A stretch of DNA of 25,178 nucleotides from a virus: positions 1 to 25,178 of the IMG/VR virus record IMGVR_UViG_3300020204_000342; one strand, written 5' to 3'. Below are positions 1 through 3,393 of the stretch, piece after piece. The notes beneath the pieces are model-generated. The model ran no database searches, had not been told where the DNA came from, and saw only the letters and a list, made by a program, of their open reading frames with translations. The stretch's first letter is position 1. Each line of letters opens with the position of its first letter. The translations under genes were made by a program, and so were the position numbers.

Positions 1-401
1 TGATTTGGCTTCTTTTCTTCTGGAATATTACGTGTAACTTTAATGCTTAACATTCCATTAGTTAGATCAGCAGTTGTTACTTCCATATACTCACCAAGTG
101 CAAACGAACGAGTAAACTTTCTTGCAGCGATTCCTTTATGCAATACTTCTGCATCTGTTACTGTTACTTGTTCTCCTTTAATAATTAATGTACCCTTATC
201 TACTAAAATATCAAGGTTTTCTTTACTAAACCCTGCTACTGCTAGAGTAATAATATAGTTATCATCATCTAGTTTAAGTAGATCATATGGTGGAAATCCA
301 CCTGCATTAACTGAATGTGCTTGGTTTAATCTATCTAATTCCCGATTAAATCCAATAAAAAAGGGATCTTTAAAAAGATCCATAGCAAATTGTGTTACCA
401 T
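1..401 (-). CDS. Hsp20 / small heat-shock protein (IbpA-like), 3' end beyond window
   Basis: Small heat-shock chaperone that would bind unfolded proteins in the cytoplasm. The frame opens with ATG at 401-399 and stays open to the window edge, giving 133 complete codons, so the C-terminus is missing. The alpha-crystallin domain is visible from about residue 38 (FPPYDLLKL, then AVAGFSKENLDI at 54-65). It runs to the typical end motif NGMLSIKVTRNIPEEKK at 115-131. A good ribosome site (aaggag) lies 5 bases before the ATG, which favours this start over the internal ATG at codon 7. A promoter at 455-484 and a terminator just upstream make it a separate transcription unit. Hsp20 genes are known in cyanophages and other aquatic phages, where a role in capsid or tail folding is suggested but not proven. 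The family assignment is secure; the phage role is inference. Confidence 0.93.
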   Translation of the reverse strand, partial: MVTQFAMDLFKDPFFIGFNRELDRLNQAHSVNAGGFPPYDLLKLDDDNYIITLAVAGFSKENLDILVDKGTLIIKGEQVTVTDAEVLHKGIAARKFTRSFALGEYMEVTTADLTNGMLSIKVTRNIPEEKKPN

Positions 402-454: not shown

Positions 455-484
455 AGTATAGCACAAAGGGCAGGTATATTTCAA
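455..484 (-). promoter_or_regulatory. Promoter for the Hsp20 gene
   Basis: On the minus strand TTGAAA (484-479) is followed after 18 bases by TATACT (460-455), preceded by TG in the extended -10 position (TGCTATACT). Transcription would start near 447, leaving a leader of about 46 bases before the Hsp20 ATG at 401. The -35 box lies in the loop of the terminator hairpin of the preceding gene. The prediction is by eye from sigma-70-type consensus. Confidence 0.6.
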
Positions 485-491
485 CCTGCCC
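468..491 (-). terminator. Hairpin terminator after the surface-protein gene
   Basis: A perfect 7-bp inverted repeat (gggcagg at 468-474 and cctgccc at 485-491) with a 10-base loop lies 14 bases past the stop codon of the secreted-protein gene. On the minus strand it is followed only by TTTG, so the U-tract is short and termination may be partial. It separates the surface-protein unit from hsp20 and overlaps the hsp20 promoter. Confidence 0.6.
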
Positions 492-505
492 GTTTGGCGG
501 ATATA

Positions 506-1537
506 CTACTTCTTCTTCTTTAGAAGAGCAGCATACTTCTTTTGTAGGGCCTTAAGGTCTGCCTGTGCTTTTGCAAGGTCAGCCTTTGCCTTTGTTAGTT
601 CTGCATCTAGTGTAGCCTTTGTTGTTTCAGCAGTCTTTGTTACAAGATCAACACTACCCAAAGCCTGAGCAAGTGATGCCTTTGTCTTTGCGTGAGCAGC
701 CTTTTCTGCAGCGAGTTCCTCTGCAGCCTTTGCAGCAACTGCCTTAAGTGCTGTTACCTCAGAAGCGAGGTCAGATACGGTAACAAACTTAACAGTTGAC
801 TTCTTAGCAGCATCAAGGCCATCAACATCGGCAACTGCACCTGGAAGTGCAATGCTAATTGCTGATTGACCAGCGATTGCTGGATACTTAACGCTAAACT
901 TTGAAATACCCGTTGTAGCATCAGATGCACCAGCAGCAACTTCAATAGTTGCACCGATAACGGCAACAGTTGGTGTAACTCCCCCAACAATGTTTCCAAA
1001 GATATCTGTTACCTTAACAATATTTTCTGCAATGCTTGCAGTGCTAACATCAGACCTGACTGTTGCATCAAGGTTGTATGCTGCACCTGCTGTACCCTTT
1101 ACATAGTATGTAAGAGAGTTTGATCCGTTAACAATAACGACTGTTCCAACCTCAGTGGTTGTTGTGTAAACAAAAAATTCTGCTGTTGTACCAGTACCAA
1201 CATTAATGGTAAGAGTGTTTGAGCCAGACTTTGAGTTTACTGGAACTGTTGCAGTGTGAAGCGCTGGAACTACTGTAGCCTTTGTTGTTGTAACAACAAC
1301 TGAAGTTCCTGCAACAATGTTGGTGAGAGCAAACTTAACTGCATCTGCTGCCTCAACCTTGTTATCTGCAGGAACTGTAACAACTGCCGCACCTGCAATA
1401 GTATTTGCATCATTATCAACAACGGCATTAACAGTAACAGCAACTGTAGGAACACTAGCGCGTGCTGGTGTTATTACTGCGACTGAACCCAAAAGTGCTG
1501 CAGACACGATAAGGGCAATCTTTTTGAATGATTTCAT
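506..1537 (-). CDS. Secreted surface protein: signal peptide, Ig-like beta region, C-terminal coiled coil
   Basis: 343 aa, function unknown. The first 27 residues form a typical Sec signal peptide: basic start MKSFKK, hydrophobic core, and cleavage after ARA (25-27). Residues 28 to about 253 are rich in Val, Thr, Ala and Ser and look like tandem bacterial Ig-type beta domains (for example VTDIFGNIVGGV at 176-187). Residues about 254-343 are a long Ala/Lys/Glu coiled coil ending in a lysine tail. There are no cysteines, no LPxTG sorting motif and no C-terminal membrane segment. An aaggag ribosome site lies 6 bases before this ATG; another ATG 4 bases upstream is in a different frame. The gene is visibly richer in G+C than the tail genes (31/60 by hand at 661-720, 18/60 at 22321-22380) and has its own promoter and terminator, which suggests acquisition from a host. 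It resembles actinobacterial S-layer-like or envelope proteins. Superinfection exclusion, a receptor decoy or a virion decoration protein are possible roles, none shown. Confidence 0.75.
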   Translation of the reverse strand: MKSFKKIALIVSAALLGSVAVITPARASVPTVAVTVNAVVDNDANTIAGAAVVTVPADNKVEAADAVKFALTNIVAGTSVVVTTTKATVVPALHTATVPVNSKSGSNTLTINVGTGTTAEFFVYTTTTEVGTVVIVNGSNSLTYYVKGTAGAAYNLDATVRSDVSTASIAENIVKVTDIFGNIVGGVTPTVAVIGATIEVAAGASDATTGISKFSVKYPAIAGQSAISIALPGAVADVDGLDAAKKSTVKFVTVSDLASEVTALKAVAAKAAEELAAEKAAHAKTKASLAQALGSVDLVTKTAETTKATLDAELTKAKADLAKAQADLKALQKKYAALLKKKK

Positions 1538-1585
1538 TCATTTCTCCTTGTTTTATGTATTATCTGACCTTTTAGCCAGAATTCT

Positions 1586-1614
1586 ATTATAGCAGATAAG
1601 ACAGTCTATAGCAA
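1586..1614 (-). promoter_or_regulatory. Promoter for the secreted surface protein
   Basis: On the minus strand TTGCTA (1614-1609) is followed after exactly 17 bases by a perfect TATAAT (1591-1586) with an extended TG (TGCTATAAT). The -35 box overlaps the last codons and stop of terL. The leader would be about 40 bases before the ATG at 1537. The extended -10 is nearly identical to that of the hsp20 promoter (TGCTATACT), which suggests the two genes share one sigma factor. Confidence 0.65.
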
Positions 1615-3393
1615 ATTGAGTTTTCCTAAAAACTCTTTTACATCGTCTGGCATCTCATTATTTCTTTCATTTTCTAGTTCTTGCCGTCTTTGCCTTTGCA
1701 TTTCTTTGTGTGCGCTTGACCAGGTTCTAACCTCTACTTCAAGATTATTTTCTTTACTAGTATATGATATTGCACCAAAGGCTGCACCACAAACTGCATC
1801 AGCCAAGTCCTTAGATGATTTTCGTGGATGGTCTACACGATTATTTTTCATAATCTTAAGTTCAGATAATTCTTCTAGTAACAGGGGAATGTTTGGCATC
1901 GCAATACGATCTTCATAAACAAGCATAGCCAAATCTTCGTAATGTTTTTTAGCAACTGACACTGTATCTGTATTAATATTTACAGCCTTAAGTTCTTGTT
2001 GAATATCATATGACTGCCATCTATCAAATGTTACCTTGCCAATATTAAAACCCAGTCTTCTAAGATTAATAATCCAATTTTTTACTTCACTAAGATTTAC
2101 TGCACCCTCTTTTTTAGGCTCCCACCATGCAACTGCATCTACTACAACAATTGGCGCTACTTGATCATAATCTTTAATTACTTGTAGGTTTACCCATTTT
2201 TCAACGTGTGCAATTGCTACAGCACACTTGTCATGTCTTTGTGCTAAGTCAGCATGAACATAATATGTTTTGTTTGGGTCTGGAACAAATCCAGGATCAA
2301 ACCTTCTAAATTGATCAACTGGATTTCTTAACGTCATGCAATTTTGTAACTTATCTTTTTGTTTAAAGAATGAATCAGAGGCGTAAGTTGGCATACACAA
2401 GAAACGCATCATTGCATCGCCCAAGTCATTATAAAATGCAACTTTAAAATCATCAATGCTTCTAGTTGGATTTACTTCCCATGTTGGTCTTTTAAGTGCC
2501 CAAATTCCAGGCAACTTGTATGAAATAATATGATCTTCTTCCCATTCAATATCTAGTGTGTTTTCTGGTGTTGCATCAAGTAATGGATTGATTATAAACT
2601 TGTGTGATTTATGTACAACATCTTTTTCTGCAATAACACTTTCATATTTTTCAGAAATAAAGTCGCCTTGATATCTTGGAAACGACAGTAGTACAACTTT
2701 TCCTAAATCAGGAAAACGAGAGTCTACGGTTCCTCTAAATGCTTTATATATATTGTCTGCTGTTTTACCTTGTTCATTTCCAGTTCCAACTTCACTAGCA
2801 AAACCAGAAATCTCATCAAGAACTGCAAGCAATAGGTTTAAGCCCTCATGAGATTCTCTTTCTGAATGTCCAGAATAAACTGTAATTGATTTATCAAATT
2901 CAATTGAGTCCACTTTAGCATTATATTTTCCTGCAAACCAGGGAGATTTTTCTATTTTTGTTTTGAATCCTTTAAAGAAGACGTTCTTCGCTTGTTGGGC
3001 GTTGATAGCAACGTTAATAAGGTCAATCGCGTCCCCAGACGGTTTGCCAAAATATTTTGCGGGATCTTTAAGACATAGTAACTTATACACAATATAGGCA
3101 CAAGCCACAGTTGAAGTGAAGTCCTTGCCACTACCCTTCCCAAGTTGTAAAATAATTTCGTTCTTAGTGTATTTATCATAGTATCTTGCTCCTTCGACAG
3201 GACCCATTAATAATTCAAGATCTGTCTTTTTATATATTTGACTCATTGCCTCTACAATTTCATACTGTATGTCTGACAATGGTGGTTGCCCTAGATAGTC
3301 TGTAGATTCTACAAATGTTTTTGTATCTACTGGATTTTTTTCAAATGGATTATCTTGCAATGCTTCAAGAAAATCATTGAACATCGTGGACAA
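1606..3393 (-). CDS. terL: Terminase large subunit (ATPase and nuclease)
   Basis: Packaging motor that translocates phage DNA into the prohead and cuts the concatemer. The 595-aa length is normal for the family. The N-terminal ATPase shows a Walker A GKGSGKD (85-91) and a Walker B LLLAVLDE (187-194). The C-terminal RNase H-fold nuclease shows candidate acidic residues D382 (YYVHADLA), D457 (VTFDRW) and D529/D532 (SSKDLADAV). The start at 3393 is TTG. A GAGGTGA ribosome site lies 6 bases before it, whereas the ATG three codons later is too far away, so TTG is preferred. It overlaps the end of the small-subunit gene by 20 bases, which suggests translational coupling. No terminator separates it from the surface-protein gene, so readthrough into that gene is possible. 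Confidence 0.95.
   Translation of the reverse strand: MSTMFNDFLEALQDNPFEKNPVDTKTFVESTDYLGQPPLSDIQYEIVEAMSQIYKKTDLELLMGPVEGARYYDKYTKNEIILQLGKGSGKDFTSTVACAYIVYKLLCLKDPAKYFGKPSGDAIDLINVAINAQQAKNVFFKGFKTKIEKSPWFAGKYNAKVDSIEFDKSITVYSGHSERESHEGLNLLLAVLDEISGFASEVGTGNEQGKTADNIYKAFRGTVDSRFPDLGKVVLLSFPRYQGDFISEKYESVIAEKDVVHKSHKFIINPLLDATPENTLDIEWEEDHIISYKLPGIWALKRPTWEVNPTRSIDDFKVAFYNDLGDAMMRFLCMPTYASDSFFKQKDKLQNCMTLRNPVDQFRRFDPGFVPDPNKTYYVHADLAQRHDKCAVAIAHVEKWVNLQVIKDYDQVAPIVVVDAVAWWEPKKEGAVNLSEVKNWIINLRRLGFNIGKVTFDRWQSYDIQQELKAVNINTDTVSVAKKHYEDLAMLVYEDRIAMPNIPLLLEELSELKIMKNNRVDHPRKSSKDLADAVCGAAFGAISYTSKENNLEVEVRTWSSAHKEMQRQRRQELENERNNEMPDDVKEFLGKLNLL

What the first reader, a model, noticed from the sequence alone, without database searches (positions are those of the whole stretch)
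506..1537. Phage-borne secreted surface protein of host-like design
Seen: a 27-residue Sec signal peptide, Ig-like beta region, 90-residue Ala/Lys/Glu coiled coil with a lysine tail, no anchor motif, and base composition richer in G+C than the tail genes. Known: phages rarely carry large secreted proteins outside of lysins and exclusion proteins. Inference: a captured host envelope or S-layer-like protein that coats infected cells, blocks superinfection, masks receptors, or is displayed on virions. The lysine tail could bind acidic wall polymers.
Basis: partly seen in the sequence, partly recalled or inferred. Interest (0 to 1): 0.75.

Follow-up and report, generated by a model that had tools for sequence, protein, structure and literature searches.

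The report
Swappable secreted coat protein of actinophages
Freshwater viruses of actinobacteria carry, often right behind their DNA-packaging gene, a secreted protein that is probably made in large amounts and whose outer part is exchanged between related viruses while its export signal and gene position stay fixed, which suggests (untested) a virus-made coat for the infected cell's surface.

Summary
Window 506-1537 (minus strand) encodes a 343-aa protein with a Sec signal, two Ig-like domains, a ~90-residue helix and a basic tail; no Cys, lipobox or LPxTG.

It is not an isolated oddity. Of 72 readable loci fetched by terminase (TerL) alone, 70 carry a signal-peptide protein in this slot. They form three families (about 340-390, 540 and 860 aa); the first two share detectable sequence only in the signal peptide. 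Phages with TerL about 96% identical carry different families between flanks 83-96% identical in DNA. Gene and TerL histories disagree, so the gene moves between lineages. Its C-terminal motif occurs in at least 503 IMG/VR contigs; two GTDB pattern scans and the cultured-phage collection gave no homologue.

Capture from a host is not supported by composition: fourfold-site GC is 0.10, as in the rest of the phage. The extra GC reflects Ala/Thr/Val content and biased codons; in eight related phages that bias resembles the major capsid gene, so high expression is likely.

Best reading: an abundant exported surface coat acting in superinfection exclusion or receptor masking. Family, export design and swapping are well supported by sequence; function is inferred and untested. 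Host genomes could not be searched sensitively.

The parts
506..1537 (-). Secreted slot protein, family F0, 343 aa (stop codon 506-508)
1457..1537 (-). Sec signal peptide, residues 1-27
   Evidence: sequence; conserved in homologues
773..1456 (-). Two Ig-like domains, residues about 28-255
   Evidence: alignment to modelled homologue
509..772 (-). Long A/K/E-rich helix with basic KKKK end, residues about 256-343
1586..1614 (-). Promoter-like site TTGCTA-17-TATAAT with extended -10, conserved in the window's subfamily and in two swapped alleles (L205, L208)
   Evidence: the number of such sites in the region is not above shuffles, conservation is the argument
1544..1549 (-). Ribosome-binding site AAGGAG, conserved
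468..491 (-). Terminator-like hairpin after the gene
   Evidence: z -4.8
1606..3393 (-). Terminase large subunit, upstream neighbour that defines the slot
3..401 (-). Hsp20 gene downstream, cut by the contig end

Best explanation
The gene is one allele of a 'slot' behind TerL in freshwater actinophages related to the Stanwilliamsviridae. Shown by sequence: a conserved Sec signal, an Ig-like ectodomain and a basic helical C-terminus; replacement of the ectodomain by unrelated ones between close phages; movement between phage lineages; codon usage resembling the capsid gene. Inferred: during infection it is made in quantity, exported by the host Sec system and held on the actinobacterial envelope by its basic helix and tail. 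There it coats the cell and blocks adsorption or DNA entry of competing phages (superinfection exclusion), and perhaps re-adsorption of progeny to cells and debris. Ectodomains would turn over because competitors change.
For: Signal peptide conserved and the only part shared by the F0 and F1 profiles (hhalign 95.6% over residues 1-29). 70 of 72 readable TerL-fetched loci hold a signal-peptide protein in the slot. Ectodomain swaps between phages with TerL about 96% identical and conserved flanks. TerL and gene histories disagree: window vs G001 52% TerL but 78% gene; window vs G002 78% TerL but 41% gene. Capsid-like codon usage in 8 phages, rank 2-8 of 82-105 genes. Fold like adhesins and S-layer proteins. 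Basic C-terminus in all three families. WhiB in 15 of 15 phages tested, so an actinobacterial host. Precedents: phage lipoprotein Ltp of TP-J34, whose secreted non-lipid form still blocks phages (PMC3952083), and host surface protein CwpV with exchangeable repeat types, which blocks DNA injection (PMC4737114).
Against: No functional, localisation or expression data. No similarity to any known exclusion or defence protein. No known wall anchor. One close relative lacks the gene in the slot (L202). Cultured soil relatives have no annotated secreted protein of this size in the slot. Capsid-like codon usage is strong in lysine codons but the overall score is moderate (z 1.5-2.5).
Confidence: 0.42

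Rival explanations
1. It is a soluble protein released in bulk (by export or lysis) that acts outside the cell: it binds cell debris, vesicles or host surface polymers so that progeny are not wasted, or binds competitor virions.
For: No anchor motif; likely high expression; Ig-like domains are binding modules.
Against: The conserved basic helical C-terminus in three families suggests retention on something acidic such as the wall.
Confidence: 0.2
2. It is a virion component (decoration or fibre-like) that binds virions at or after lysis.
For: Ig domains are frequent on virions (BFVD matches include tail and structural proteins); codon usage resembles capsid and tail tube genes; it lies next to TerL.
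Against: The Sec signal takes it out of the cytoplasm where tailed phages assemble (established knowledge); no structural PHROG match; in other lineages the gene lies away from structural genes.
Confidence: 0.15
3. It is a host envelope (S-layer-like) protein captured by the phage and used as the host uses it, for example to stabilise or mask the cell.
For: S-layer/adhesin fold; Sec signal of ordinary bacterial design.
Against: No homologue in two GTDB scans, fourfold-site GC equal to the phage, broad phage-only distribution.
Confidence: 0.12
4. It helps infection or lysis from outside, for example by weakening the envelope or working with the secreted subtilase and PA14 proteins found near it in relatives.
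For: In other lineages it lies beside a CHAP lysin, secreted subtilase and thioredoxin genes.
Against: No catalytic domain found; free exchange of unrelated ectodomains fits recognition better than lysis.
Confidence: 0.08

Closest known systems
Ltp superinfection-exclusion lipoprotein of Streptococcus phage TP-J34 (PMC3952083)
   Same: Phage-encoded and exported to the surface of a Gram-positive host; a secreted non-lipid form still works
   Different: Ltp is a lipoprotein with a lipid-anchored Cys, from temperate phages; here no Cys, Ig-like domains and a basic helix; no similarity found
CwpV of Clostridioides difficile (PMC4737114)
   Same: Surface protein with several different C-terminal repeat types behind a constant part; blocks phage DNA injection
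   Different: Host-encoded, phase-variable, wall-anchored by PF04122 repeats
Invasin/intimin Ig domains and S-layer proteins SbsB, SbsC, Sap
   Same: Fold of tandem Ig-like domains
   Different: About 7-20% identity, no outer-membrane barrel or SLH anchor, phage-encoded
Stanwilliamsviridae (Streptomyces phages Yaboi, Muntaha, SparkleGoddess, Mildred21)
   Same: TerL 51-54% identical; Yaboi has the same order DnaE-MazG-UvsX-exonuclease-RuvC-TerL
   Different: After TerL they carry HNH endonucleases, small proteins or an annotated peptidase, and tRNAs; no annotated protein like the slot protein

Membership tests
Big_1 / invasin-type Ig domain proteins | Profile match over the Pfam gathering score | tested here: not met
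   Only sub-threshold hits in relatives (Invasin_D3 3.9e-4, Big_1 4.7e-3); none for the window protein
Big_1 / invasin-type Ig domain proteins | Ig-like fold similar to invasin/intimin | tested here: met
   Foldseek E 4.7e-7 to invasin 1cwv, 1.9e-6 to intimin D0-D1; TM over the whole chain is low (0.2-0.3)
S-layer proteins | Known wall-anchoring domain (SLH and the like) | tested here: not met
   No such Pfam or NCBIfam match
S-layer proteins | Forms a surface lattice | not testable with these tools
   needs microscopy
Ltp-type superinfection-exclusion proteins | Lipoprotein signal with Cys | tested here: not met
   No Cys in the first 40 residues of any unique slot protein
Ltp-type superinfection-exclusion proteins | Blocks DNA injection of other phages | not testable with these tools
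   needs plating and adsorption assays
Sec-exported proteins | n-, h- and c-regions with AxA-type cleavage site, conserved | tested here: met
   (AxA in 70 of 71 unique F0 proteins, 16 of 31 F1); no trained signal-peptide predictor was available
Virion Ig-domain proteins | Match to a structural PHROG | tested here: not met
   No PHROG at E<=0.1 for the window protein and none at E<=10 for a homologue
Host-captured gene | Homologue in cellular genomes | tested here: inconclusive
   None in two GTDB pattern scans, which need short exact motifs; profile search of host genomes was not possible
Host-captured gene | Foreign synonymous composition | tested here: not met
   Fourfold-site GC 0.10, as in the phage genes; codon bias resembles the capsid gene in relatives

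The most novel reading that the evidence does not exclude
A dedicated viral surface-variation locus: actinophages coat infected cells with an abundant secreted protein whose unrelated ectodomains are exchanged as cassettes behind a constant signal peptide, an arms race fought between phages on the surface of the shared host.
Probability: 0.35. Interest if true: 0.85.

Novelty: new variant of a known kind. Interest (0 to 1): 0.62.

Why it matters
Freshwater actinobacteria (order Nanopelagicales and relatives) are among the most abundant lake bacteria and their phages are little known. A large phage-only protein family, exported, probably made at near-capsid level and exchanged between phages, would point to competition between phages on the cell surface as a major force. 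It gives a testable candidate for superinfection exclusion in abundant lake phages, whose members have no entry in the family libraries searched here.

Tried and rejected
Host capture by base composition: rejected, because fourfold-site GC equals the phage. Homologues in cultured phages, PHROGs, Pfam, NCBIfam and PADLOC (weak coil-only hits) and PDB sequences: nothing solid. Heptad periodicity of the helix: not significant. The structure model of the 537-aa alternative family is poor (pLDDT 56), so its S-layer matches are only suggestive. A DNA-level shared tail between F0 and F1 was seen clearly only for L205 (80% over 75 nt); for the others the match is at amino-acid level and my ungapped comparison cannot judge it. 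Promoter-like site count in the region is not above shuffles. The extended -10 site is absent from the alleles with a 16-nt gap behind TerL, so an own promoter is not general. No paper describing this family was found in eight searches of the open library.

Full report
What is there. Window 506-1537, minus strand, is an intact 343-codon gene between the large terminase gene (1606-3393) and an Hsp20 gene cut by the contig end (3-401). The window is a 25,178-base IMG/VR virus record. Its TerL is 54% identical to that of Streptomyces phage Yaboi (Stanwilliamsviridae), and the order DnaE, MazG, UvsX, exonuclease, RuvC, TerL is the same. WhiB, an actinobacterial marker, is found in 15 of 15 related phages tested (use as a marker: PMC10202952).

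The protein. Residues 1-27 form a typical Sec signal with cleavage after ARA. An AlphaFold2 model of a 42%-identical homologue (mean pLDDT 84) shows two Ig-like domains followed by one helix of 112 residues; in the window protein this helix would be about 88 residues. Foldseek matches are invasin, intimin, InvD and S-layer protein SbsC. The protein has no Cys and no LPxTG; the ectodomain is slightly acidic (-4) and the helix plus tail basic (+6). Coiled-coil periodicity is not significant, so I call it a long helix.

A large phage family. One scan with the window protein gave 123 relatives in IMG/VR. Each of 25 records searched whole holds one gene of this family; two records list a second row that is the tail of the same gene. 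No homologue was found in 50,697 cultured-phage records or by two scans of 84,980 GTDB genomes. The scans rest on short exact motifs, so distant host relatives are not excluded. dN/dS in the window's subfamily is 0.17 overall and 0.14-0.20 in the mature domains: purifying selection, with no sign of point-wise diversification.

The slot. To avoid bias I fetched loci by TerL alone and read what follows it. Of 79 loci examined, 7 end too soon. Of the other 72, 70 have a signal-peptide protein as the next gene, or as the next but one behind an inserted ~220-aa ORF. In L203 the contig ends inside such a gene. Only L202 truly lacks it: the sequence runs from TerL through a promoter-like site to Hsp20. 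Over all loci with TerL the proteins fall into three families: F0 (the window's; 59 loci), F1 (43 loci, median 537 aa) and F2 (4 loci, about 860 aa). This second tally includes loci fetched with F0 itself, so its proportions are biased towards F0. The F0 and F1 profiles align only over residues 1-29, the signal peptide (hhalign 95.6%). F2 shows only weak Big_1-like similarity to F0 (22%) and a weak signal-peptide match to F1 (24%). Some F1 members carry the same KWN..NP..KV tail as F0.

Cassette exchange. Sixteen of 168 pairs of phages with TerL at least 95% identical differ in slot content. In L010/L205, L248/L277, L009/L208 and L008/L213 the DNA is 83-91% identical up to the promoter or signal-peptide codons, unrelated through the ectodomain, and 83-96% identical again after the gene; two of these loci also carry the inserted ORF. 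Among eight large records and the window, TerL and F0 disagree: window and G001 share 52% of TerL but 78% of F0; window and G002 share 78% of TerL but 41% of F0. In the second phage lineage the gene lies elsewhere, near WhiB, CHAP lysin, thioredoxin and secreted subtilase genes. In four cultured soil Stanwilliamsviridae and one Rhodococcus phage no comparable protein is annotated after TerL, so the slot protein appears to be a trait of the freshwater lineages.

Expression. The high GC is not foreign: fourfold-site GC is 0.10. Lysine codons are AAG in 28 of 31 cases against 27% in the other genes. In eight related phages the F0 gene ranks 2nd to 8th of 82-105 genes for codon usage like the major capsid gene (capsid genes identified by PHROGs), next to the major tail protein; z is 1.5-2.5. 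High expression is therefore likely, but inferred. A ribosome-binding site AAGGAG precedes nearly all alleles; an extended -10 promoter precedes the window's subfamily and two swapped alleles; a hairpin follows the window gene.

Function. Exported, probably abundant, basic at the C-terminus, with Ig-like binding domains that are exchanged as units: this fits a surface coat that competes with other phages. Exclusion proteins of Gram-positive phages are known to act at the surface, and a secreted non-lipid form of Ltp still blocks phages (PMC3952083). CwpV shows that a host surface protein with variable types can block injection (PMC4737114). None of this is homology. Rivals are a released decoy, a virion-binding part, a captured host envelope protein, and a lysis helper. 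I give the coat/exclusion reading 0.42.

Verdict. The composition argument and the 'rare capture' argument do not. The exchange of whole ectodomains behind a constant signal peptide, the distribution and the codon usage are what I add.

Noticed in passing
L053:10741-11256 and cluster c1 in 58 of 81 loci (related phages, not the window): Conserved 170-190 aa protein with an N-terminal MTCIAG and weak proteasome-beta/HslV similarity (NCBIfam 20S_bact_beta 3.4e-5, below cut-off): a possible phage-encoded proteasome-like hydrolase.
   Followed up: partly
L069:4017-4961: Secreted subtilase (Pfam S8 1.1e-18, mycosin-like 6.8e-10) with its own signal peptide, conserved near the gene in the second phage lineage.
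   Followed up: partly
L012:7651-9924; also L053:7604-9196: Large proline-rich proteins with a PA14 domain (7.5e-9) downstream of the slot; the L012 copy has a signal peptide: a second exported surface-type protein in these phages.
   Followed up: partly
between TerL and the slot gene in L007, L010, L203, L205, L211, L213, L215: Inserted ORF of about 180-225 aa ending in KLIKENLI, function unknown, possibly a mobile element.
   Followed up: no
L202, after TerL: Close relative of the window (TerL 92%) in which the slot gene is missing and Hsp20 follows TerL directly.
   Followed up: partly
window 3-401: Hsp20 small heat-shock protein gene next to the slot (phrog_432, 3.9e-33), cut by the contig end.
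   Followed up: no
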